Positions 9,114 to 57,400 of a stretch of 64,000 bases of DNA are shown here, piece by piece. The position numbers and the translations under genes were made by a program. Each line of letters starts with the position of its first letter. The first letter of the stretch is position 1. The notes under the pieces were generated by a model. The model had not been told where the DNA came from. It made no database searches and saw only the letters and a list, made by a program, of their open reading frames with translations. This stretch comes from Viridothelium virens (Eukaryota; Ascomycota; Dothideomycetes; Trypetheliales; Trypetheliaceae). Location: positions 366,758 through 430,757 of the forward strand of contig ML991787.1 of NCBI GenBank assembly GCA_010094025.1. The letters are read 5' to 3'.

Positions 9114-11797
9114 CTACGCTCCAACATTCTCGAGATACTTCAAGCGTACACTGACAGCTCGCTCGTGAGCGTTCAATCCTTCCACCCTCGCCATTTCCTC
9201 CACTGTTCCACCTAAATTTCGCAAGCCGTCTTCCGTCAACTTGGAGCTCGTGATATGCTTGAAATATGAACCCAAATTCACACCTGAGTATTGTTTCGCG
9301 TATCCATACGTTGGCAATGCATGGTTGACGCCAGCCGAGTAATCGCCAACAGATTCCGGAGTCCATGAACCAATGAACACACTGCCAGCATTCTGGACCA
9401 TATTCACAACATCAATTGCATTCTCAACCTGAAGGATAAGGTGTTCGGGTGCGTATGTATTGCTCAACTTCATCGCTTCGTCAATGGTCTTAACAACGAG
9501 TGTGACTGAATGCTCAATCGCCCCTCTCACGATATCTTTCCGTGGTAAAGCATTCGCTTGTTTGTCCAACTCATCTTCGATAGCAACTAGCTGCTGTTCA
9601 CTCAAGTCCACCGCGATGCAAACCACTTGGCTGTCCGGACCGTGCTCTGCTTGAGACAACAGGTCGGCTGCGACAAAAGCCGGGTTAGCAGACTTATCAG
9701 CCACGACCAAGACCTCACTCGGCCCCGCCGGCATGTCAATAGCCACGCCTGCACTTGTATCATTCGCGACCAACATTTTTGCTGCCGTTACGAATTGGTT
9801 ACCAGGACCTAGAATCTTGTCGACCTTGCTCACAGACGGAGTACCATATGCCATAGCTGCAATCGCTTGAGCACCTCCAGCAAGGACGATGCTTTCCGCG
9901 CCAACTTTTTGCGCAACGTAGACTATCTCAGGCGATATAGAGCCGTCTTCTCGAGGCGGCGAAGCAATGACGATCTTCTCGCAGCCTGCCACTTTCGCGG
10001 GGACACCGAGCATCAATGCTGTTGAAGGTAGCACGGCTGTGCCACCGGGGACGTAGAGACCGACGCGGGCAATGGGGCGTGAGAAACGAGAGCAGGTAAC
10101 GCCTGGCATCGTCTCTACGATGAGAGGCTTTGACTCTTTCTGCGCAGCGTGGAAGCGCCAGATGTTGTCAAATGATATATCGATTGCTTGACGCACCTCT
10201 GGTGGCATCTGCATAAGACGTTCAGAAAAGGGAGCGGTAATTACGGGGGATGTGAGAGAGGTAGCCTTCTCAAATCGGTGAGTATATCTCAGAACGGCTG
10301 CATCACCTTCGTTCTGTACCTCTTGAATGATCGGCTTGCAGATGTTCATGATCTTCTCGGTGGATTTTTGAGATGGTCTCCGGAGAGCTTCTTCGATAGT
10401 CTCGGCAGAAACCTCGGAGGTTACGTAGCGGGTCATTGCTATTCGCCCATCACGCAGTCCAGCTGGGTCTTGGGGCTCTTTGGGAATAGCTGCAGCTTCT
10501 TTGACCATCTCTGTATTCTCATCCTGTTTGGTGGTGCCATTTGAGAGACCGACCTGTTTCGCGTATGCAGGCTTCGCGTCGCCCCGTCGCCGCTTGACTT
10601 TGACACTCTTCGCGTCAAGATTGTGTTCAACATCTTCCAGACTTACTCCTGCCGCTATACATTTTGTGAGAGCGAAATATAACAAATCTGCAGCCTCGAA
10701 CGCGACATTCTCTTTTGTATCGGCGTCGCATAGCTCATTTGCTTCTTCCAATATTTTAGCTTTCAGTAGTGTGGGATCATCAAAAAGACGCTTGGTGTAT
10801 GATCCTTCAGGTGCGGATTCTTTTCGCGATCGTAGCGTCCTCTGAAGTTTTGCCAATCCTCTATAGTTTCCGAAACATGATGATGTTGCGAGGTGACAGA
10901 ACCCTGTAACACTCAGCGTGGAAGTATCCTGCGGTTCGCAAGAACAACAATACCTCTGCCTTTTTGTCTCACGATGAACTGCAGACAATCTTGATCGCAG
11001 TCCAATGATATTCGCACCAGCTCTTGAGTATCCCCACTTGTAGCACCCTTGTACCAGAGACCTCTTTTCCGGCTTTGATACACACCATCGCCAGTTCTGA
11101 GGCTCTCAGAAACACTCTCCTGGCTCGAATATACCAATCCTAATGCTATGCCCCTCTCATCTGTGACCAAGGTTGTGATCAGTCCGTCCGGGCGATCGCT
11201 TTCAGCACTGGCTAGGAACAGGCACGCTGCAGGAATGAGGCTCGGTTCTGACTTTGGGTCGACTGTTAGGAATGTCGCAGGAATAATTGGAATCGCCCCG
11301 GCGTTCGCGACTTCTTGAGCAGATGGTTCGGTGGGATTGGCAAGACCGACATATATAACTGGATCACCCTTTGACTTTTCTAGTAGTAGAGACAGTGAGC
11401 TGAAATCCTGCACCTTGGGGAAGTATGCACTTCCAGTAGCTGCAGTGCTCGCTTCTGACGCGCTTGGGACATCAACAACAGTTACAATCCTGTTCTGATC
11501 GAGATTGTTGATTGTATTCAATTGCTCTAATTGATTGGGTGTGACAAAGATTCTGGTTGCACCCGAGTCGAGTAGCGATACAGCATCATCAATAGATTCC
11601 AGGTCTGTGACATCAAAGTAAGATTCAAATAAGCCAAATGTTTGCTGAAGATAGAGGAATGCGTCTTCATCCTTTACTGCTTGTTGGGAGAGCTTGATAA
11701 ATACGTGGCCGATGTAGGAAAGGGCTTTTGCATCAAGGCCTTGCTGCTGAGATGTATACGTCCCGACGTCGATCTGAGCAAGAAAAGGGACGCCCAT
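9114..11797 (-). CDS. HIS4: Trifunctional histidine biosynthesis protein
   Basis: Model: complement(join(9114..10903,10954..11797)), 877 residues, close to Neurospora his-3 (about 870). It carries phosphoribosyl-AMP cyclohydrolase, phosphoribosyl-ATP pyrophosphohydrolase and histidinol dehydrogenase, i.e. steps 2, 3 and the last two oxidations of histidine synthesis. The fungal N-terminal extension is followed by the cyclohydrolase block (VYQSRKRGLWYKGATSG, then GFCHLATSSCFG across the splice near residue 282). The pyrophosphohydrolase helices follow (KILEEANELCDA, AADLLYFALTKC). The dehydrogenase occupies the C-terminal half, with YVPGGTAVLPSTALMLGVPA, GPGNQFVTAAK, DMPAGPSEVLVVAD, QAEHGPDSQ and YAPEHL. 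The 50-nt intron has a weak donor (GTATTG at 10953) and acceptor TTACAG at 10904, phase 1. About 200 bp separate its start from the divergent hydrolase gene, so a shared promoter is likely. Confidence 0.96.
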
Positions 11798-26452: not shown

Positions 26453-29400
26453 TCATTCTACCTGTACAGGATCATCAAGATCTTCTTCTAACTCCTCGTC
26501 TATCACGCCGGCTCCATCATCCTCGTCGTCATCTCCAACAACGACTTTCTCCTCCGGGGGCAATAGCCCCTCTCCCTTCTTGATCGCTTCTACCTTCGCC
26601 TGCGTCATTTCAAACACGTACTGCCCGAGATGCTCCACGCCAGTCATTTCAACTCCCTCTCCGACATCGTCATTGAGCACCCGCGCAGTAGGCTGCAATT
26701 CCCCAGTTACAAGCCTCAGCGTATCCGGACGTTGAAACAGGAGCTCAAACGCAGCATGCAGTTCCGGAACGACTTCAAAAACGGCGCGGCGTCCGAGAAT
26801 GTACAAACCCAGACGAGCACGAGAAAGCGCAACAGTGAGACGGCGCAAGGAACGTAGGTATCCGGGTCGGGTGGTGCGGGTGAGCGAGAGGATGATATCT
26901 GATCGAAAGTTAGTACCGAGAATTCCTTGACACCCTTGGAAAATTGTTGGAAAGACATACAATCATTCTGCTCCCCCTGATACCGATCCACCGTACTCAC
27001 CGTCCTCGGCATGCCAAACAACCGGTTATCCCGACACCGATGCGCCAACACATCCCGGATCAGCGCCCTCTGTCCCGCATACGTAGCCAGTATACTGATT
27101 CTGCTCGCTGGATACCCAAGCAATCGCATGTACATGAACAGCGCGACCGCATATTCCGCCTCACCCAGATTCTGCACAAAGTGCGGCGACGGCGTGCTTT
27201 CTCCTTTGCCCTTATAGTCCGGCACGTCGACGAATTGGTAGTCGTACCGGAAGCCCGCGTTCGCGGTCTGGAACTCCGGATCCGTGAGCACGTTGGGTAG
27301 GTTCTGCAACGCGGGATACCGCCACTTGTACAGTTCTGCAAGGCTGGGTCGCGCTCGGCCCTGCGCGTCGAGCATGATGGTCGGCACGCCCAGACGCACG
27401 AACCGGAGAAAGAGAGATTGTTCGAGGTTGGCATACTGGCTAAATGCCTGGTTCTGGATAATGGGGCTGTTTTGGAAATGGTCGCCGATGAGGACGACGC
27501 GTTGGAGAGGCATGTCCTTTCCTGAATGCTCGTTCTTTAGTTCTTGGGGGTTTTGAAGCGCAAGCGGGATGAAGTTCTCGATCTCCGTGATTTGGGCGGC
27601 TTCTTCCATGATGACATTGTCGTAGTGGAAACCAAGATTTGCGATTTCTTGGCGGCGCATGGCGGCGTGCGTGCTGGTCATGGCGATGATTCGAGCTTCT
27701 TTGACGAGAAGATAGTTTGCCTTGTCGCGCGAATTGCGCAGGATCTCAAAAGGGCGGATATCTTCAAGTTCAGAGAAGATCTTTTCGATGTGCCGATAGC
27801 AACCTGAAATGATGTCCACTACTTCTCTCCTCGATGCATTTTCGGAAAACAGGGGACTTGGTAGATTTGAAAAGTAGTCATGGAAAGGGAACGCTGTAAT
27901 GATGTCCTGCGCATCTTGTGTCCCTGTGGCAACAACATCCCAATATTGCTTCCAGCGGGGTTTGATGTAGACAAGGTTAAAGTAGTCAGCTGTTTCGCAA
28001 GAATTACCATGAGCGCCAGGGGCGCCGATGCTTTTCGCTAGCCGATCGACTTCACCAAGATATCGAGCGCCATTCTCAAGAAAGGACTCGACACGACCAT
28101 GCTTGCTGTAGCTTGCTTCGGTCTCAAGTTCTTCCTCACCGTGTCCAAGCCGAAGAAGATGTCTTTCATCAATGTCAAGAGCCACAATTTTTCTGAAAAG
28201 GTTGTTGAGAGCCTGATTGCTATGCGCGATTAGAAGGGTTCGTTGCGAGGGGAAGTTATGATAGATGTTGTTAATGATTTGAGTGGCAACGTCAGTCTTG
28301 CCAGTGCCTGGAGGGCCAACGATAATTGAGAGGCCAGGCTGCGTGCCCGAAGAGATAGCTTCTATCTGCGCAGGTGTGAAGCGAACAGAATTCAGTCTTG
28401 GAGCATCTGTAGGATACGGTCCAGTATTTGGTGGTTTGTAGGTCGAGACCAGGACTTTTTTTGTTCTTGCCGACGTCGGCACATCTTCTTGGTCGCGTCG
28501 TCTCTTCTTCGATGGCCGAGGTGCTTCCTCGTGGCCCTCTTCGGTCATCGTCTCGAGGATGTATGGCGGCCCGAAGCTGGACTGGGCTTCCTCACTTGGC
28601 TCGATTGTTCTGCCAGGAAAGCTTTCGATAAGGTGCGCCCAGTCCAAGAACGTATCTCGAAAGTCAATAGACTTGAGTCGATTAGATAGCCGCTGATAGG
28701 TAGCACTAGCAGGATCGCCGTATCCTAGAAAGACCTCCTGAAGCCAGGAGGGAACGGGAATGTCCGACAACGTTAAGCGTCGAATTGACTCGAGGACGGA
28801 CTTGAAATTATTCTCTCTTGCTCTCCGACGTACGATGAGATTAATCGATTCATAGACTTCTGTGGCGGCCGATGCTGCCCCTTTGATGTCTGCCGAGTAT
28901 GCCACAGTATCGACTTTCAGAATAATTCTCCTTTGGCGAACTCTACGCTCGTAGCCGTCCTCTGGTCGAGTCTGCTGCTCACGTAACGGTCGTCCCTTTT
29001 CGTCTTGCACCTGAAGAACCTCGGCGCATCGGATATATTTTATTCCATGCTTTCGAGAAGCGTCTCCATAGGTATAACCATTTCCATTTGCAAGAGAATC
29101 GTCTTGAGCATGAACCCCGACGAGAAAGACGACATCGTCTGGCCGTAGAGTCTCCCACTCTCTTCTTACTCCAGAGTTGAGACGCTGAACATCTAATATC
29201 ACCTCGCTCCGAACGATGGCCGGCTTGCTTTCCCCAACCTTTGGGGGGGCGACGTCTAGTATAGCAGGTTTCGCAATTGGTAGTGCTAGTCGGGAGAACC
29301 CTTCAAATCGAGTGCTTGTGCCTACCAACCGAGGCTGCATTCGCTTGACGGTGTCCTCGATATGATTTCGAATTTCGTAAAAGGATTCGGAACGATGAAG

Positions 29401-30972
29401 AATGAATGACCGCCAAAGAAAGTCGCCCATGGAAAGATATTGTAGATTGAGCTTAGGAACAGCAAGAGGCCTTGACCCGTTGTATTCTGCATTACGCATC
29501 AAGGAAGCCTCGTACAAAATGGAATCAGTCGGAAGGATCGGCATTCCTCCGATCGATTCTTGAAAAGTGTGATGACGTTCAAGAGAGGCGAGTAGAATGT
29601 TCAGGATTAATTCTCGATCTTGAATAAGTGACGAGGACGGATACGTTATTCGCAATCCAAATTGAGAGCAGAGCTGCCTCAAGTCGTCGTCAGAAAGAGA
29701 CTCGAATTCAGCACGAGTCTCCTCATTATTGTTTACTGAACCAAGGTTAGAGAGCGCGAGAACTTTTAGCTTTGACTGATAGCCTTTTATGATTATACGC
29801 TGAAGGTTTGATAATTTGGCATCGTGCTTTTGATGATACTCAACGGTCGAAAATTGCTGCCCAGACTGATCATCAATCGGGAAGTAGGTATAGTGTTGTA
29901 AGAGGGTTGCAAGATCTCTAAATAGACCACTCCCTTCTTTTTCACAGAGAGGCGATAGTTTGATGATAATCAGCAAATTGAGATTTTGGATGAGTGAGTT
30001 CACATGTCGTCTAGTCGGTAATTGGCTTTGCAAATCCGTCAGAAACTCGAGGAGCCTTTCGCAATAGTGCAGGTTGTCCTGAGAAGCTACTTGTTTGTCA
30101 TCGGAGATCTTGTCAATGAAGTCTAGCATCAAAGTAAACAGCCAGGTTCTCTCAAACCGTAGCTTGGATTTTGTGGGCTCGTCCGCTGCATCGTAGCGCT
30201 TAGCTGCTGCGCGCCAGGCCTTCTTAAGAGTTGGATTCTGGTCAAGCCTTCGTTCGCGTGAGGCATCACTGTGGAGATTGTGCCAAATTGCAATGGAAAC
30301 CAAAGGCGCGCACTCCTTGCGTACTATTCCATTGTCCAGAGATTGAAATGCTCCAATCATAAAAGTGATGAGTTGCGTTCGAACCAGCAGGGAAAGGGAC
30401 GTGTCAACAGTCATTGACAAGATTCGGCGGAAGAGTGTTGAGAATTCTGCTGACTTGTTCACAAGGAGATCTGCTACTGTGTTAGCTTGCTCATTAACTT
30501 GAGACTCCACTGGGTACGAACCCCACGATGGCAGATTCTCCCTTCTCTTGACGTTTAGGATGAGTATGATGAGGAGGATATGATAATTCGATGAATCCTC
30601 GGAAAAACCAGGCCAAAGATATCCCTCCAGCACCTGTAATTGCTCCAGCAAAAGTAACTGGCCGAATGCGAAGCCATCTTGCTCCAAATGATCCCAAAGC
30701 TCTTCCTTGACTATTTTCTGCTGAACCTTGGGAGATTTCTTCTTGTCTAACCATGTTTTCCGAGCCGTATGCGCGTAGTGGTTATCGCCTTGAAGGTCTG
30801 CAAGTGTGGGGCGTCCGAGAAGCGCGTTTTCGGCGTCTGCGTTCAAGGACGCGTTTGTGGGTGCCATGGTGGACGGCGCATTGGCGGCGGCAGCAGCAGC
30901 AGAAGGTTCACTCTCGTGCGCACGACCGAGAAAAGGAGAGCGAGAGCTGGGACGGAAGGCGAGAGAAGCCAC
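26453..30972 (-). CDS. cwf11: Spliceosomal RNA helicase Aquarius / Cwf11 (intron-binding protein)
   Basis: Model: complement(join(26453..26898,26961..30972)), 1485 residues, normal for the family. Aquarius is an SF1 (Upf1-like) helicase of the spliceosomal intron-binding complex and contacts intron RNA upstream of the branch site. After an Ala-rich N-terminus, the family region begins near HTARKTWLDKKKSPKVQQ and runs as a long helical armadillo-like domain. The helicase core has the Walker A IIVGPPGTGKTD near residue 865, the Walker B-like VIMEEAAQITEIENF, GDHFQNSPIIQNQ, TVDRYQGEQNDY and LTVALSRARLGLYI. The 62-nt intron (donor GTATGT at 26960, acceptor ATCAG at 26899, phase 1) splits the EQND-YIILSL motif. 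The C-terminus is acidic (DDDEDDG). Met36 at 30867 is an alternative start. It shares a 193-bp divergent promoter with the complex I subunit. Confidence 0.94.
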
Positions 30973-31165
30973 CGTGAGCCCCGTTGGTCAGAATCGAAGG
31001 GACGTTGAACTGGGTAATGCTTGCATGCGACGAGACTGCGTGAACTTTTCTGAGGCCGAAGCTTCATATCGCTTGGGCCACATCCAGAAATCCAGTATCC
31101 ACACTCCTCCTTCTCGACTTCGATCCCTCCGCCGAAGCCCTCCATTGATCATCTTCGAGCTCAAA

Positions 31166-32386: not shown

Positions 32387-35136
32387 CTAGATATTCAGTT
32401 TCTCAAGAGAGCCATGGGAATCGACCATTGAGACCTCAGGCATCTCCCGGCTCACCTCTGGGACTTTCGTGAATAACCAGGTCGAGGCGTACATGTTAAC
32501 CCTACAGTATCAATCCAGTAAGCAGAGATAAGACTGAAAATCTACTAAAAGACATACCGGTCAATGCAGCTCCCAGGAAACCTTGCCGCAACCCGCTTTG
32601 CTACGAATCCGCCCTCCTCGAATTTCTTCACATACCAAGGACTCAAACCTGAGCTCCGTATCAAAACCCGTCCACCTACTTTGAGTGCTCTATGCAGTTT
32701 CTGAATCTGCTCTTCCGCTGCTGAGCTCTTTGGATCCATCCAATCCATACTGTCCATAAGCACAGCAATAGTGAGAGTTGATGGCGTCATCCGCGCAATC
32801 ACTTCATTCATCTCATCTGTGTGGATGCGCAGGCCATCGAAAGCGTTGGGACGCGAGAGTTTGGTGTGGGCTTTCGGAGTAAGGTAGTCCGGATGACATC
32901 GGCGAGAGTAGCAGCCTTGCAGGCAAAGGAGATAGTAATGGTTATCATCGCTAACCAGAGTAGTATTCACAAGGGGATCGAGGGTATTGACCATGTACTC
33001 CCAAATTGCTCGTCCCCAACGGATGCCACGTTGGGCAGTGGGTAAAATCTCACTTTCACTGTTCTCCGAAATGCCACTTTGGCGAAGATAGTCATGTTCA
33101 ATCATCTCGCGCTGAGCTGGTGGTACGCCAAGTGCCTTCCACAGCCATCGCTCGTTACCGACGATCGTCCAGCTCAAAATCCGGCTGAGCAAGACTCGAC
33201 GGATGCTTTTTTGCCAGATTTCGCGCTGTTCATTAAGTGTTCTTGCAGCGCATAGACGCTCTACTTCTTGAGTGAGCCCAAGTAAGCGGAACAACCATTT
33301 AACAAGATTCAGAGCATGGCGAGATCCACCTGTGTAGTAAAGGCCGCGCCTAACAAACGTACGCTCCCCGTTATGAAGCCAGAATTGAAAGGCCAGACTA
33401 GACATATGTGGACTCAGCTTTTCGACGAGTAAGCTTCGGAACTGCTCATGTTTGCCCTCGCCAAACAGCTTCCAAATATCAGAATAGCCGAGAGCTGTAA
33501 AAGCAGCTATCTTAAGCTCAAGCAAGTGATTTTGAGCAGGGCTGAGAAGGTGAATCAGTAGGGTAGTCGGCTATCTATTCTGTTTTTTATACTTACTTTA
33601 AGTCGACGGCATGAATCCGCTTCGGTTGTTGTAGAGCATATGACAGCGCATTGTCACCTGCACTTGTAACTGCAAGGATAACGTCGTCTTCTTGAATCTT
33701 GAGTATCCGCGCATCCGCTCTCGCGTCCTCCCACGTAAATGCATAAATGTATTCACTATTGAATTGCTTGTGTTTGGGCAATGAATTATCGTAGTAGATT
33801 CGCCAATGGTGGCTTTGGTACCAGCTTGCTGGGAGCGGAAGGCTTGCCGCTAGATTAACGATTGCCGACTCGTATGCCTTTGAGTGGATATCCACTGAAG
33901 TCGACTTACGAGCCTCTTCTAACGATTTCCTCTGCAGATCCAAAGCTGAGAGGTACGGGGATTCTGTTGCAGCCGCGTCCAGCTCGGCCAATTTTGTTCC
34001 CGAAGATCCTGTCTCTTTCGGACATCCGATCCAAATATAGTAGGGAATCCTCACTCCGCAGAAATGGTTGCGTGCATTGACACTGATGATTGTCCCAAAT
34101 TTATATTCCAAGTAGTCCTACGAAGACCATTAGTTGATGTAGCGTTCTAAAATGCGACTGGGAACGTACCCTTCTGGCGGCCTCTAGGCTGACCCTATCA
34201 ATGTCGAACCATCCTCTCCAGAACACTCTCGAGCCCCAGTTACAATGCCTATCGATATCTCCACCAGTATAATTTCGGCTCTGGTAGTCGGCCCTGCTTT
34301 GAACGTAAAAATCCGCAACACCAATGATACCAGTAGGAGCAAGAAAAGACGGGATTGAATCGATCACGGGATAGAATTCTGGAATCATACTGAGTGAGTA
34401 GGACATGGTTATGATATCCGCTCCGCTCGAGCTCGAACTTTCCTGCAGGCCATATTTGGTTTGCGTGATCGATGTAGGAGAATTCCTGCCGCTGCCTAAC
34501 TCTTCATGATCCTCCAGCCGGAAAGAGCGAGCGTCTTGGCAGAGCACCTTGACATTTTTCCAGCCAAGTCGCTCAAATCTATCGATTGCCACTTTGCATA
34601 AGGAGGGAGAGAAATCAACCACGTATACAGACTTGAAAAAGGTTGGAACGTCGAGGAATTGCGACATGGCTTCGACGTTGTAACCAGTGCCTCCGCCGAT
34701 CTCAATAGTGGTCAGCCTCGTCTGTATTATGGTTGATAAAGTTCTCTGGTCTTACATCAACCCACACAGGCTTGCGGACGAGAGCCCCAGTTTCCCTGCG
34801 ATACTTCAATTGGGCGGCCACCAAACCCAACATATCCTCGCGACCATGGAGCAAGCGCTGGCGTGTGGCATCGTAGATGGACGCCTGGGCTTTGTAGAAA
34901 CTCTCCAAGGCATCCTGCTGATTTCCACTGGCGTCGCCGGTGTGTGGTTTCAGGAAGCAGCCATAGATGAAGCGACTATAGCTGTGAATTGTCTCGCCAA
35001 AACTCAAAGAAAACTTCAAGTTGCCAAAGGAAGCCACAAAGACAACTATCAGAAGGATTAGGACAGCAACACTGGCTAACCCAATTTGATTGAGCGGATC
35101 ATTGAGCAGCTTCAGTGCTGATTCGAAAGCAGCCAT
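32387..35136 (-). CDS. BTA1: Betaine lipid synthase (DGTS synthesis)
   Basis: Model: complement(join(32387..32501,32558..33541,33597..34117,34170..34700,34756..35136)), 843 residues. The bifunctional enzyme makes diacylglyceryl-N,N,N-trimethylhomoserine: 3-amino-3-carboxypropyl transfer from SAM to diacylglycerol, then N-methylation. A membrane segment (LASVAVLILLIVVFVASFG) starts near residue 20. The methyltransferase domain has motif I as PVWVDIGGGTGYNVEAM across intron 1 and ADIITMSYSLSMIPEFYPV further on. The C-terminal BtaA-like domain includes AVTSAGDNALSYAL, AVDLNPAQNHLLELK across intron 3, FLLNG-like FWLHNGERTF and VLMDSMDWM. The final short exon was chosen because splicing GTATGT (32557) to TGTAG (32502) restores CIDRVNMYASTWLFTKV; the unspliced frame would end in YVF. 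The enzyme replaces phosphatidylcholine when phosphate is scarce. Confidence 0.93.
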
Positions 35137-38237: not shown

Positions 38238-39047
38238 AATGAGGATAGAGATGAGTACGATTTGATTGTATACGGAGTCACCTGAGTGGCTCTATTAAAA
38301 CCTAAGCATTGTCGATAATGTAGAATACTACACCTTAGTTGGGCGCGTAACGGTGTTTTCTGGTTACCGTTGCATTCTTCGTACAATCCAGAAATTTCGA
38401 GAACGGTAACCCAAACCATGAATAATATATTCGTATTCTAGTAGCAGAAGATTCGAGCATAATGGAGGCACAAGTTTTGAGTGTGTTAAGTCATGAGCAA
38501 GGGTAAGAAAATTCAAGGAATGACGTCACGTATATTCATCAGTCCGTATTTACCTTAAGGAGGTACTTTAGTTAGTTTCTACCTTCTTGATTACAACTGA
38601 TGAACGCTCTTGCACTGCTGAGAGGTCCCGAGTGGCTTCATTGCTGTCTATTGCGTGCGTTTCAGGATGCTCACCCACATAGACTTGGCCGGAATATCTT
38701 GTGCTGCGATACATCCAGATTGAGGTTTCGGCCAGCACTGAGCCATTCCTCGAAACCCCACAGATACAGTCTCTAGCAAACGCGACCATACTGGTATCCC
38801 TCAAATTTCGTTCACGGGACTCACAGATAGAGTCTTCAATCTGTACCTCCCTCAGTCCAACAAAGTGTAGTTACTTGCACGTCATTTCCAGCAATCACGC
38901 CACTCTCACCGATCAGTTTCGCACATTTCCTCCTCTACCTTCCTTCTGTATTGTTTCACTGAGACTCGACAACTTAAGTGCAGGGTTCTGTTTCTTTCAC
39001 GCGTACATACTAGTGTCTGACAAAATCCCACCTTGAGTATCTAAACA
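38238..39047. other. Intergenic, no gene seen
   Basis: About 0.8 kb upstream of AAR2. An inverted pair AACGGT/ACCGTT is at about 38349-38370. Short ORFs on both strands overlap and lack motifs. Confidence 0.5.
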
Positions 39048-40391
39048 ATGGAGCTTCTTGATCAACCTTGCATACTATTACTAAATCTACCTCCATCTGC
39101 TATGGGTGGTATCGATCTCCTTTCCTTCACAACTACACCTCGGTTCCAAGGGATTAAAGGCATACCACCTGGGTTTCACTTCATATTCACTAGTCCAACT
39201 ACAGCCCTCTCTGTTCGTCATGGTGCGTGGTTCCATGTTGGTGAGCCCTCTTCCCCATCATCGAATTTCTGGATTAAGAAGTGGGACTCGTCGAGAGAGG
39301 AACTAGTATCCGAGGATGACCAGGCCAGTATTCTGAGATGGCGTGCAAATATTGGCTCGATCTGGAAAGGGCTTACACCGTATCGCCAGAGCGCCAGTGG
39401 ACCATCAAATGAACCTCAAGAGGGGATAGAGATCTCCAAAGCTTGGACAGATTTGACTTCGTATATAACACCCTCTTTGCTTGCCCGCATTACCGGAGGC
39501 CCACAGGATCATTGGAATTTGACGTCGGTTAGCTCCGCTTCGGTGGATGTTGATCATATTCCTGGCCTAACCGCCCTTGAAAGCATTATCCAAACTGAGA
39601 GGGAACTTAATTTCGTACCAATCAATCTGAAGCAAACTTGGAGGGAAGGAGCTACAGGTCGAGAAAGAACTAATGGAGCGAGAGACCGCTCTTGGGCCTT
39701 GGATGATTTGATTACCCGGTATTGCGCTGATCAAAGCGAGCTAGAAATCCTTGGAGAACTGCAATTTTGTTTCTTAATGGTACTAACCCTGAACAATAAT
39801 TCTTGCCTCGAACAATGGAAACGAATATTGAGCTTGCTTTGCACTTGTCGAGGAGCAGTGCTCCAGCGTCCTCAACTCTTCGTCAATCTCATGACAACTA
39901 TCAGCTTGCAATTGAAACATGCCCAAGAGGCCGAGGGAGGACTTTTTAACCTGCACGAAGACGACGGCGAACTTATCCGAAACTTACTCCGAGATTTCAA
40001 GCGAGGGCTAGAGCAAGAAGACGGGTCGGCCAAAGAAAAAATTGTCGGGGCGTTTGGCGAGTTAGAAGAATTCATCAGAACCGAGTTCGGATGGGAACTG
40101 CAGCATGATTTCGTAAGAAATGGTATTCTGGAACTCGAAGATGGAGAAAGAGTGGAGATGGATATTGGAGGAGACGAGGAAGCTGATGAACTCGGAGAAT
40201 ACGCTCCGATGGTGGTGGAACTGACACCGGAGCAAGTCAAGAATTTGGACAGTGACCTATCTGCAAAGCCAAGTGTGCCATTACACCTTCGCACTGGCTA
40301 CGCAACACACCCCAATGAAGATGAAGAAGATCAAAGCTACGATTACGATATCGAGGAGAGTGATTTGGAAAATATGGACAGCCGATATTGA
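39048..40391 (+). CDS. AAR2: U5 snRNP assembly factor AAR2
   Basis: Single exon, 447 residues. Aar2 binds the Prp8 RNase H and Jab1/MPN region in immature U5 snRNP, blocking premature Brr2 binding. The N-terminal half has the family pattern: LLNLPPSAMGGIDLLSFTTT, FQGIKGIPPGFHFIF, and HGAWFHV, followed by FWIKKWD. The C-terminal helical half holds LGELQFCFLMVLTLNNNSCL and QWKRIL. The tail is acidic (DEEADELGEY, later HPNEDEEDQSYDYDIEES), as in other filamentous fungi. Yeast Aar2 is shorter (355 residues); the difference is in linkers and the acidic end. Confidence 0.88.
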   Translation: MELLDQPCILLLNLPPSAMGGIDLLSFTTTPRFQGIKGIPPGFHFIFTSPTTALSVRHGAWFHVGEPSSPSSNFWIKKWDSSREELVSEDDQASILRWRANIGSIWKGLTPYRQSASGPSNEPQEGIEISKAWTDLTSYITPSLLARITGGPQDHWNLTSVSSASVDVDHIPGLTALESIIQTERELNFVPINLKQTWREGATGRERTNGARDRSWALDDLITRYCADQSELEILGELQFCFLMVLTLNNNSCLEQWKRILSLLCTCRGAVLQRPQLFVNLMTTISLQLKHAQEAEGGLFNLHEDDGELIRNLLRDFKRGLEQEDGSAKEKIVGAFGELEEFIRTEFGWELQHDFVRNGILELEDGERVEMDIGGDEEADELGEYAPMVVELTPEQVKNLDSDLSAKPSVPLHLRTGYATHPNEDEEDQSYDYDIEESDLENMDSRY

Positions 40392-45545: not shown

Positions 45546-45552
45546 AAAAAAA
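45546..45552 (-). terminator. RNA polymerase III oligo-T terminator
   Basis: Seven T residues on the minus strand begin six bases after the discriminator base of the tRNA-like gene, the normal place and form for Pol III termination. Confidence 0.75.
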
Positions 45553-45557
45553 GGAAC

Positions 45558-45696
45558 TGGACTGAGGGGGATTTGAACCCCCGGCCTTTCACAGAACACA
45601 TTGTCGGACAATGCGAAGCGAAAATCATACCCCTTATTCACTTAGCCAACAGCTTGGAAGTAAGATGTAGAAACTAATTACCTAGACCATCAGCCC
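45558..45696 (-). tRNA. tRNA-Ala(CGC)-like gene with D-loop and anticodon-loop insertions
   Basis: Acceptor stem: GGGCTGA (45690-45696) pairs fully with TCAGTCC (45559-45565), including G3:U70, the alanine identity pair, and A73 at 45558. T-arm: GGGGG TTCAAAT CCCCC at 45566-45582, directly adjacent. Variable loop AGGCC. Anticodon stem TTCGC/GTGAA encloses 25 nt; removing 18 nt after position 37 leaves a 7-nt loop with anticodon CGC. The D-arm reads TGGTCTAG, then a 49-nt insertion (45633-45681), then GGGTATGATT; without the insertion it has the normal length. The insertion begins GTAATT, has GGCTAAGT near its end and finishes AATAAG. It also includes TGGCTAAGTG, which matches a box A. It may be a working gene with two introns or a disrupted pseudogene. 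Confidence 0.7.
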
Positions 45697-53974: not shown

Positions 53975-54093
53975 ACTTGCGATCATAGGAACGTGAAAGC
54001 ACTCGATCCCGTCCGCTCTCGATACGTTAAGCACGTTGCCGCCTCGTCAGTAGTTGCGTGGGTGACCAGCAGCGGATACGGGGTATTGCAAGT
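53975..54093 (+). rRNA. 5S ribosomal RNA gene (dispersed)
   Basis: 119 nt. The ends pair over nine positions (ACTTGCGAT with ATTGCAAGT, one G:U) as helix I. Helix II pairs GGAACGTG with CACGTT-G-CC. Conserved blocks include GATCCCGTCCGCTC (loop C), GTTAAGCACG (box A region), AGTAGTTG and GTGGGTGACCA (box C). Helix IV shows a compensating G-to-C pair relative to common fungal 5S forms, which argues for a working gene. A T-run at 54093-54097 begins at the last base and serves as terminator. Single dispersed 5S genes, not in the rDNA repeat, are normal in filamentous ascomycetes. Confidence 0.9.
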
Positions 54094-54489
54094 TTTTATT
54101 GTTGTCTTTTTTTTGCTTCTTCTAGTTTGTATTATACGTTGGTTCTTACGTCAAAGGCTTGAGGACGCTGGAGGTCGCTAAGATTTGGACTGGTGTCCTC
54201 TTAAGCTCCACAGGGCAAGAATATTAGACCTCTAGAGTTAGCTCTGCCTTGGATTTTTTATTTTCTTGTCTCTTCCCCCTTCCCATTTTTGTTCTTCTTT
54301 TGAGATTTATGTAAAGCGCAAATTACTAGCCTTGTAGCTGGGAATTGCCCGCTCCTGTGACAGAAAAGCGTTGTAGTGAGACGTGCAAATTCACTGAATG
54401 TGCTTTGTAGAATGTAGTAGCTGCATAGTTGAACGTGTTGTATGTACAGCAAAAATACACAAGTACAAGTTTAAGGGTATCTATAATGA
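54094..54489. other. Short intergenic stretch
   Basis: About 0.4 kb between the 5S gene and the NTE1 stop codon. T-rich tracts at 54094-54115 (5S terminator region) and 54255-54302. No gene is seen. Confidence 0.5.
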
Positions 54490-57400
54490 TCAAATGCTCG
54501 CTCGTCGCGGAGCCATGGTCCTTCTCAGATTCTTCTTCTCTTCTGTCTCCTCCATCACGGGCAATACCCCATCTGCTTTCAGCTGCGCCAGATATTGCCT
54601 CCCATACTGATATCCTACCTGATCGATCTCCTCGAACTTGTCAAAAGCCAATGTTCCATATGGATCGATCGGTGGACGCATGAATCGACAGCCTGGCGTT
54701 GTCTTTGCCCTCTCGAGCGCGTCTACACTCGAGACATACGCGAGCCTAGCCTGAATTTCCTGGAGGGTTGGGGGGTTCGGATGAGAGGAGAAGGGGTTCC
54801 ATCGGTTGAATGAAGCCCAGAACCCCGACAGTGAATCTCCATAGGTTTGGGGAGTATTATCGTCGAGTGCACCCACGTCGACAGCAAAGATGACATCTGC
54901 GCCAAGCGATTTCATATGTTGCACGGTAAGATTGTCGACGTAGCCACCATCGAGTAGCATGTCTCCTTCGTCACAAAGCGGAGGTAATAAGCCGGCAAGG
55001 GTCATCGAGGCACGTACATAACGCCAAACATAGCCGCTGGTATGAATTTCGCATCGGCTTCTGCTTATGTTCGTTGTGTTGCAGTAAAATTCGAGCCAGA
55101 AGTCTTCGATTTGGGCGTTGCCCAACGTCTTGAAAAGGCCTCGATTGAATTCATGGCCCGTGGTGTAAGAGACGCTGTCCAGCGATTAGTACTAGAGCCC
55201 TTTCGAAGGAGGATTTGACTTGCGATGGGTACGTAACATCCAGAACCAGCCTCCAAAAGCTACCCATCCGACCACAAAATTTCTTCGCTCGTCCGTACAT
55301 GGGCACTACGTCAGCATCCCAAGCGTAAAGCGCTCCAATGAAAGCGCCAATAGAAGTTCCTCCAACTATATCAATGGGTATGCCTGCCTCTTCGAGAGCT
55401 CTCAAAATCCCTACATGGGCAATGCCTCTCGCGCCTCCGCCACCCAGGACCAGACCGACAGATTTGCCGCATAAACGGCGAGCTAGCCTGTAAAAGTCGC
55501 CTTTGAATGGCGATTCAGCCGAATACAGTGGCGTTTGGCGCACTTTGCGCGAAGTATATTTCTGAATCTCCGCCTGGATCGTCTGAACTCGCTTCTTAAG
55601 AGCGGAACCAAACTGGTTTTCTGGTGGATGGACGGGCTCTGGTGCGCTACGATACGGCATCTGTATGTGGTGATGGCTTCCATTGATCCAGACACGATTT
55701 CGCAGCCATCGCCTGGTCAAGCCGGGTGGACAATATCTCTCAGCATGAAGTAGAACTAATTCCTTACGCGCTGTTGTCTTGGTCGTCAAGAGAAACCTCT
55801 CGTATTCACCGATGGCAGGCGATCCTTCTGCAAGTCCAACAAGGAGGATGCAGTCCGCTTGGCTGATGCATGTCTGAGTCCAAGGTGACTTGACAGGAGT
55901 GTCAGCAATATAGAGCACAAGTCCATATTTATCTTCAAGATCTGCAAGATACTGCGATAACTTCAATTTTCCCATCCTACTAAAGGCATGTCGCCCTAGA
56001 TGGTTGAGGATCGCTGATTGATTAAGGGAAGTAATTCCATTTGAAATGCCGATTTGTGTCAGTGCGTTCAAAAGACGATTTCCGAATTCAACCACAGGTA
56101 CGCCTGCAGTAACTGGAATGATTGCTACTGTTCGGAGATTCACAGTCGACGACGCCTTGCTTGTCTGTACAGCAGAAGTCCGCTCGCGTCCAACGTCTCG
56201 TAACGGGTCCTCGATAAGCTGTCGCATCCTAGACGCAATAATCCTGGAAATTTTCATGGTAATTCCGGGATGTTCTGATGCCAGACTGTTGAAGAGTGTT
56301 CGTGGAAGCTTAGCCATTTCTGTGTCGCGAATAGCATGCAAAGTACTTGATCGTGCTGTTTCCGTTAGGACTTCAAGCTCTCCAACACTGTCACCTTGAC
56401 CGTATTCGCCTGTGACCTTGATCGACTCGTTCTGCGATTCTTGGATAGCCCTAAGTCGCCCATTCAGAACAATGTAAATGGCATCACTTTCATCATTCTG
56501 ATGGTAAATAGCCTGACCGGCGTTGACTTGGACCCACTCCAGCGCGAAGTCGATGTGAAGGATGATACGAGGCAGTAAAGTAGTCAGTCTCTTGGCCATT
56601 GTTAGAAGAACAATTGGGTGACGTTCAACGATCCTTTCAATCACGGCACGTGGCAGAAATCCAACATATACGTCTGTCTTTGCCGTGACGTCAATGAAGG
56701 ATCTATGCGAAGATACGGTCCCAAGGTATCCAGCTAAGCCTCCTGGCTTGGTGGTGAATAGACTCCTCCTTCTCGGTGTCTTCCTTTTCTTCGAATCATT
56801 CGCACCAGCACTCGAGCGACTGGACGAAGGTGTGTTAGGCTTGTAAGCTGCTTCGCCAAACAATTCCGAAGCCATCAGATCTGGCGACTGAGGAGACGTC
56901 CCGAGCACGTTGGTCTCCGTGTCGTACTCGTCAATGGGTACGCCCACGTCCAAGAAGCCATCAATCACGTAATAGAGCCCTGGATTTCGCTCACCTTGTT
57001 CGACAAGAACAGCGTCTTTGGGAAAGTAGACGATTTCAATCTCATTCCTCAACTCTTCTAAAATGTTCAAAGGCGCAGTTGTGCTGGTAGTGGCAATGGA
57101 TGTGGAGGTAATAGAATCGGTGTCACCGTCTGCAGAAACGTCATATGGTTCCATCAGGCCGAAAGCATTGTTGAAAACTGCCTTTTGACGCCTTGAATCA
57201 TAAGATACGAGTCGTGGAGACTGCTCGACAGAAACGGGCTTCCGTATACTGATCTTGCTCGGGGACAATCCAATGGCTTTAAACATGCAATCCAAGATAG
57301 ATTCGCGGAATTGCATGTCCTCATCCATTGAGTCTTGTCGGTGCATGTGTATAGATGGACGGACCGGACTTGCAAAAGGAGTTACAATCTCCCGCTCCAA

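What the first reader, a model, noticed from the sequence alone, without database searches (positions are those of the whole stretch)
45558..45696. tRNA-Ala(CGC) gene split by a 49-nt GT...AG-like insertion in the D-loop plus an 18-nt anticodon-loop insertion
Seen: seven acceptor pairs including G3:U70, A73, a perfect T-arm, a 5-nt variable loop and a T7 terminator. These are intact although the ends lie 125 nt apart. Removing 45633-45681 and 18 nt after position 37 gives a normal-length cloverleaf. Known: eukaryotic nuclear tRNA introns normally sit only at 37/38; D-loop introns are reported from archaea and some algae. Inference: the D-loop insertion starts GTAATT, has GGCTAAGT, and ends AAG like the spliceosomal introns in this window, and it brings a second box A-like TGGCTAAGTG. 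It could be a spliceosomal intron caught in a tRNA gene, an endonuclease-spliced intron, or a disruption with a replacement promoter.
Basis: partly seen in the sequence, partly recalled or inferred. Interest (0 to 1): 0.88.

Follow-up and report, generated by a model that had tools for sequence, protein, structure and literature searches.

The report
Fungal tRNA gene with mRNA-like intron
A fungal alanine tRNA gene, otherwise intact in the features checked, is interrupted by a normal small tRNA intron and by a second 49-base insertion that looks like a messenger-RNA intron, so either two different splicing machines are needed to make this tRNA or this copy of the gene has recently been broken.

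Summary
On the minus strand, 45696 to 45558, lies a tRNA-Ala(CGC) gene with intact acceptor, anticodon and T stems, G3:U70, A73 and a seven-T terminator. It carries an 18-nt insertion at 37/38 (ordinary) and a 49-nt insertion in the D-loop (not ordinary). With both segments removed at each of 127577 positions, ARAGORN finds tRNAs only at this locus. Of the deletions tried, only 49-nt ones restore the D-arm TGGTCTAGnGGTATGATT, and one of the four equivalent registers is GT...AG. Its splice-signal score (12.93) lies above 5 and below 10 of 15 mRNA introns taken from this window. Random inserts reach it in 0.06% (strict) to 0.2-0.4% (liberal). The signals are weak, however: no G5, CTAAG branch, AAG end. 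Bulge-helix-bulge (BHB) and tandem-duplication origins are not supported, and the replacement box A only weakly. Spliceosomal removal is my leading reading (0.45), closely followed by a recently broken gene copy (0.40). No eukaryotic genome or RNA data were available, so copy number, sister species and function are untested. Spliceosomal introns in U6 and lichen rDNA are precedents; the papers my searches listed showed none in a tRNA gene.

The parts
45682..45696 (-). tRNA exon 1: 5' acceptor strand and first part of the D-arm (positions 1-15), ending AG before the insertion
45633..45681 (-). 49-nt D-loop insertion, GTAATT...GGCTAAG...AATAAG; candidate spliceosomal intron (possible branch A at 45642)
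45639..45648 (-). box A-like TGGCTAAGTG inside the insertion, overlapping the branch-like motif; not clearly beyond chance
45612..45632 (-). tRNA exon 2: rest of the D-arm, 5' anticodon strand, anticodon CGC and A37
45594..45611 (-). 18-nt insertion at 37/38, position of the ordinary eukaryotic tRNA intron
45558..45593 (-). tRNA exon 3: 3' anticodon strand, 5-nt variable loop, T-arm, 3' acceptor strand, A73
45569..45579 (-). box B GGTTCAAATCC, the only match to GGTTCRANNCC in the window (1.04 expected)
45546..45552 (-). run of seven T, likely Pol III terminator

Best explanation
A nuclear tRNA-Ala(CGC) gene of a filamentous ascomycete (taxon inferred) with two introns of different kinds. The 18-nt intron at 37/38 would be cut by the ordinary tRNA splicing endonuclease. 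The 49-nt D-loop insertion is an mRNA-type (spliceosomal) intron at an AG|G site and would be removed from the precursor by the spliceosome. Shown: the anatomy; that among the deletions tried only 49-nt ones restore the usual D-arm; and that this segment has GT-AG ends and branch-like signals beyond chance. Inferred: transcription, splicing, the order of steps, and that the product is used.
For: Intact stems and conserved bases, G3:U70 and terminator. tRNA hits only at this locus among 127577 positions. One of four equivalent 49-nt registers is GT...AG at AG|G. Length within the 48-83 nt of 15 window introns; score above 5 and below 10 of them; reached by 2.6% of 11815 GT-AG pairs of 45-70 nt, 3.9% of 514 pairs of 49 nt, 0.06% of 20000 random inserts with strict registers, and 0.40% (15-intron model) or 0.23% (10-intron model) of 40000 with liberal registers. 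The HIS4 intron of this window also has an unusual donor and a CTGAG branch, and the ATH1 intron ends AAAG. Precedents: mRNA-type intron in fission yeast U6 (PMC10484740, passages); spliceosomal introns in lichen rDNA, removed by yeast from Pol I transcripts (PMC8527467, passages).
Against: Donor GTAATT lacks G5, branch CTAAG lacks the final pyrimidine, 3' end is AAG. No RNA evidence. Copy number and sister species untested (no genome held). A review says D- and T-arm insertions in eukaryotic tRNA genes are mostly in one of many synonymous genes and supposed to be pseudogenes (PMC4090602, passages). The joined tRNA's predicted minimum-energy fold is not the cloverleaf (-27.6 against -23.9 kcal/mol).
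Confidence: 0.45

Rival explanations
1. A recently disrupted, non-functional copy: one of several Ala(CGC) genes received a 49-nt insertion by an unrelated route, and the GT-AG look is coincidence.
For: The usual explanation of D- and T-arm insertions in eukaryotic tRNA genes according to a review (PMC4090602, passages). The splice signals are weak. A recent insertion would leave the exons intact.
Against: No exon damage seen. Random inserts match the splice score in only 0.06-0.40%.
Confidence: 0.4
2. A tRNA-endonuclease (BHB-type) intron in the D-loop, as in Cyanidioschyzon merolae or nucleomorphs.
For: D-arm introns accompanied by a 37/38 intron exist in C. merolae (PMC9602550, passages) and non-canonical introns in nucleomorphs, many without a defined BHB (PMC3978253, passages).
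Against: Best D-loop BHB score matched by 30 of 100 random windows, and from registers that do not restore the D-arm; local fold weaker than shuffles on average (z +1.18).
Confidence: 0.06
3. Tandem duplication of the gene's 5' end, so that the insertion holds a decayed second 5' half.
For: GCTG-TGG-CTA recurs in the insertion; with the 18-nt segment removed ARAGORN accepts an internal start.
Against: 763 of 5000 random 49-mers match as well. The insertion's last 16 nt are matched by 2945 of 20000 controls ending AG and 755 of 20000 free 16-mers; flank-plus-5'-end alignments by 495 to 1201 of 3000. The internal start has mismatches in the acceptor.
Confidence: 0.03
4. A different tRNA with a single intron: tRNA-Val(TAC) with a 56-nt intron.
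For: ARAGORN's own call on the unspliced sequence when introns are allowed.
Against: 85-nt product, intron at 39/40, poor D-stem and a 14-nt variable loop; it discards the D/anticodon arm that matches tRNA-Pro of L034.
Confidence: 0.02

Closest known systems
mRNA-type intron in the U6 snRNA gene of fission yeast (PMC10484740, passages)
   Same: An mRNA-type intron inside a small Pol III-made RNA, thought to arise by reverse splicing
   Different: U6 is a spliceosome component, so reverse splicing has an obvious route; a tRNA is not. Here splicing is not shown
Ectopic spliceosomal introns in lichen rDNA (PMC8527467, passages)
   Same: Short (57 bp in the example used) spliceosomal intron in a non-coding structural RNA of an ascomycete
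   Different: Pol I rRNA rather than a tRNA; there removal is shown
Non-canonical tRNA introns of Cyanidioschyzon merolae and nucleomorphs (PMC9602550, PMC3978253, PMC4090602; passages)
   Same: D-arm insertion together with a 37/38 intron in one tRNA gene
   Different: Reported as BHB-type or undefined; no BHB beyond chance here, GT-AG ends instead, and a fungal host (inferred)
Eukaryotic tRNA pseudogenes with D- or T-arm insertions (PMC4090602, passages)
   Same: Insertion in the D-arm of a tRNA gene
   Different: No other damage seen here, and splice-like ends

Membership tests
Eukaryotic nuclear tRNA-Ala(CGC) gene | Acceptor, anticodon and T stems, conserved bases, Ala identity G3:U70 | tested here: met
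   identity rule recalled
Eukaryotic nuclear tRNA-Ala(CGC) gene | Box B and Pol III terminator | tested here: met
Eukaryotic nuclear tRNA-Ala(CGC) gene | Recognised by tRNA models without editing | tested here: not met
   ARAGORN default 0; Rfam 18.2 bits, cut-off 29
Eukaryotic nuclear tRNA-Ala(CGC) gene | Makes a mature, charged tRNA | not testable with these tools
   no RNA data
Spliceosomal (U2-type) intron | GT...AG ends at the boundaries set by the tRNA | tested here: met
   0.95% of random inserts in strict registers, 16-17% in liberal ones
Spliceosomal (U2-type) intron | Donor, branch and acceptor like those of the host | tested here: inconclusive
   score above 5 and below 10 of 15 introns; no G5, CTAAG, AAG
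Spliceosomal (U2-type) intron | Length typical of the host | tested here: met
   49 nt; 15 introns 48-83, median 53
Spliceosomal (U2-type) intron | Removed by the spliceosome | not testable with these tools
   no RNA data
BHB-type non-canonical tRNA intron (49 nt) | Bulge-helix-bulge at the splice sites | tested here: not met
   30 of 100 random windows as good
Canonical eukaryotic tRNA intron (18 nt) | Position 37/38 | tested here: met
Canonical eukaryotic tRNA intron (18 nt) | Anticodon-intron pairing with accessible cut sites | tested here: inconclusive
   anticodon pairs with the intron in the predicted fold, but the 5' site is in a helix and the strict BHB score is matched by 172 of 300
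tRNA pseudogene | Exon damage beyond the insertion | tested here: not met
   none seen; a recent pseudogene would look the same
tRNA pseudogene | Intact redundant copies elsewhere; decay in sister species | not testable with these tools
   no genome held

The most novel reading that the evidence does not exclude
A working tRNA gene whose maturation needs two splicing machines: the spliceosome for an mRNA-type intron in the D-loop and the tRNA endonuclease for the anticodon-loop intron. Gene finders that look for eukaryotic tRNA introns only at 37/38 would overlook such genes.
Probability: 0.35. Interest if true: 0.88.

Novelty: new variant of a known kind. Interest (0 to 1): 0.52.

Why it matters
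If spliced, it would show the spliceosome acting on a pre-tRNA, extend ectopic spliceosomal introns from U6 and rRNA to tRNA, and give a natural test of how introns enter non-coding genes. It also points to a blind spot: the passages I saw of the tRNAscan-SE 2.0 paper describe its non-canonical intron search for archaeal candidates (PMC8450103), and here neither ARAGORN defaults nor the Rfam cut-off reports the gene. Fungal genomes could be rescanned for tRNAs split by GT-AG segments.

Tried and rejected
Pattern searches for relatives of the D/anticodon arm: 0 matches in viral contigs twice and 0 in genome contigs. A loosened pattern gave 93 stretches in genome contigs, 80 of them listed, about what chance predicts (about 120, my own estimate). 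A motif test on the 93 flagged 1: L034, a tRNA-Pro(TGG) beside ORFs that look to me like yeast UFD1, CWC23 and ADE12 (recalled), on a contig titled Haloplasmataceae MAG. It served as comparator.

Not supported: tandem duplication of the 5' end; BHB in the D-loop; replacement box A (a looser box A pattern gave 107 matches against 80.9 expected); Val(TAC) and internal-start readings; the insertion as a repeat of another window sequence (best other match 12 nt). A protein-coding host gene: no ORF of 200 aa or more overlaps the locus. Two minus-strand stop-to-stop ORFs of 110 and 74 aa overlap its 3' part; I did not search them for homologues.

The first automated intron scan gave 1 candidate. The second was crude: its codon score had a negative mean on the coding stretch used as a check, probably read out of frame; of 85 candidates those above a score were printed and I kept few. 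Of the 15 introns in the model, 10 were joined by eye by reading frame (and, for ATH1, the ORF pair); ATH1 and NTE1 also fall at breaks in Pfam matches. Five, in an importin-like gene (weak Pfam match), rest on the scan alone. The 10-intron model gave a similar result.

Full report
What is there. The minus strand from 45696 to 45558 reads as a tRNA gene once two segments are left out. ARAGORN then reports tRNA-Ala(CGC) with a seven-pair acceptor, a five-pair T-stem, a five-pair anticodon stem and a D-stem that it draws with two standard pairs, one G:U and one weak position. U8, A14, G15, U33, A37, C48, TTCAAAT and A73 are in place. G3:U70 and the CGC anticodon agree on alanine (identity rule recalled). 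Seven T lie at 45552-45546, five bases after A73.

Is it chance? The 49+18 double deletion at 127577 positions of both strands gave 14 tRNA hits, all at this locus with the template shifted by a few bases. No deletion gave 0 and the 49-nt deletion alone 0. The 18-nt deletion alone gave 20, of which the 10 printed are at this locus. Five other length pairs gave 10, 4, 3, 0 and 0 hits, those printed again at this locus. The joined form aligns without gaps, up to the 3' acceptor strand, with a tRNA-Pro(TGG) on a yeast-like contig, L034. L034 was found with an 18-letter pattern from this D/anticodon arm, so that stretch is circular, but the identical ATGGTCTAG and AGGCC lie outside the pattern. 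Box B matches once in the window, here, but one match is expected by chance.

Why gene finders miss it. Default ARAGORN finds nothing. With an intron allowed it gives a Val(TAC) with a 56-nt intron at 39/40 and an 85-nt product. Rfam reports no tRNA at its cut-off and 18.2 bits against 29 in a permissive search, starting inside the insertion.

The 18-nt insertion sits at 37/38. In the predicted precursor fold the anticodon pairs with it, but the 5' cut site is inside a helix, and a strict BHB score was matched by 172 of 300 random windows. I treat it as an ordinary tRNA intron by position.

The 49-nt insertion. Of 912 single deletions tried, 357 leave some ARAGORN tRNA starting at G1 (or the base before it). 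Four of these give TGGTCTAGnGGTATGATT, all 49 nt long and all the same product; one is GT...AG, at AG|G. Three other GT...AG deletions (47, 55 and 34 nt) also leave a formal tRNA, but without that D-arm. I built a splice model from 15 introns of protein-coding genes of this window, 48-83 nt, median 53. The insertion scores 12.93. Leave-one-out scores of the 15 run from 4.9 to 22.6, 5 below the insertion and 10 above. Among 11815 GT-AG pairs of 45-70 nt in the window 2.6% score as high, and 3.9% of 514 pairs of 49 nt. Of 20000 random 49-nt inserts, 0.95% show GT-AG in an equivalent register and 0.06% also reach the score. With liberal registers and lengths, 17% (15-intron model) or 16% (10-intron model) of 40000 show GT-AG, and 0.40% or 0.23% reach the score. 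The weak features are a donor without G5, the CTAAG branch and the AAG end. In this window the HIS4 intron has GTATTG and CGCTGAG, and the ATH1 intron ends AAAG. In budding yeast several protointrons lacking G5 were validated as spliced (PMC6726248, passages).

Other sources of the insertion. Similarity to the gene's own 5' end is reached by 763 of 5000 random segments; for the insertion's last 16 nt by 2945 of 20000 with AG fixed and 755 of 20000 without. There is no other copy in the window (best 12 nt). D-loop BHB scores are matched by 30 of 100 random windows. The internal TGGCTAAGTG is one of three such matches in the window against 1.84 expected.

Folding. The full precursor folds better than shuffles (z -2.60), the D region alone does not (z +1.18). 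The joined tRNA's predicted minimum-energy fold lacks the D-arm (-27.6 kcal/mol against -23.9 for the cloverleaf), a point against over-reading such predictions rather than against the tRNA.

Host. Aquarius, AAR2, GWT1, histidinol dehydrogenase, NTE-type patatin, GH65 and DUF3419 proteins and a 5S rRNA gene fit a filamentous ascomycete. The best Aquarius chain, 9l5r_Y, is from Chaetomium as I recall; the call shows no organism. No genome is held for this window, so copy number and sister species are untested.

Mechanism. I consider it most likely (0.45) that the insert is an mRNA-type intron. [quoted passage not shown] yeast removed a transplanted 57-bp example from a Pol I transcript (PMC8527467, passages). 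A recently broken gene copy is nearly as likely (0.40): a review states that D- and T-arm insertions in eukaryotic tRNA genes are mostly found in one of many synonymous genes and supposed to be pseudogenes (PMC4090602, passages). Against simple decay stands the lack of visible exon damage, but a recent insertion would look the same. Removal by the tRNA endonuclease, as for D-arm introns of C. merolae (PMC9602550, PMC3978253; passages), lacks structural support here.

Literature. Ten full-text searches of open-licence papers: by title and abstract start, the papers listed showed no report of a spliceosomal intron in a tRNA gene or of a D-loop tRNA intron in fungi. Two lists were capped (15 of 58, 10 of 44). 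I read passages of eight papers and none whole; most subscription papers are not in the library.

Verdict. It is a rare and clearly testable architecture; its function is open.

Noticed in passing
53975-54094 (+): A single 5S rRNA gene (Rfam 87.4 bits, full length) among protein genes, as in fungi with dispersed 5S genes (the latter recalled).
   Followed up: no
55175-55223 (-): A 49-nt GC-AG intron (GCAAGT...CTAAT...CAG) in an NTE-type phospholipase gene, placed by reading frame.
   Followed up: partly
10904-10953 (-): HIS4-type gene intron with unusual donor GTATTG and branch CTGAG, the lowest-scoring of the 15 introns.
   Followed up: partly
34701-34755 (-): An intron next to a DUF3419-containing gene region that seems to end in GAG rather than the usual pyrimidine-AG.
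   Followed up: no
26899-30987 (-) and 39045-40391 (+): Two splicing-factor genes, Aquarius and AAR2, lie in the same window.
   Followed up: no
L034 1-8000: A contig titled Haloplasmataceae MAG carries a eukaryotic-type tRNA-Pro(TGG) and yeast-like ORFs: likely a misbinned yeast contig (ORF names recalled).
   Followed up: partly
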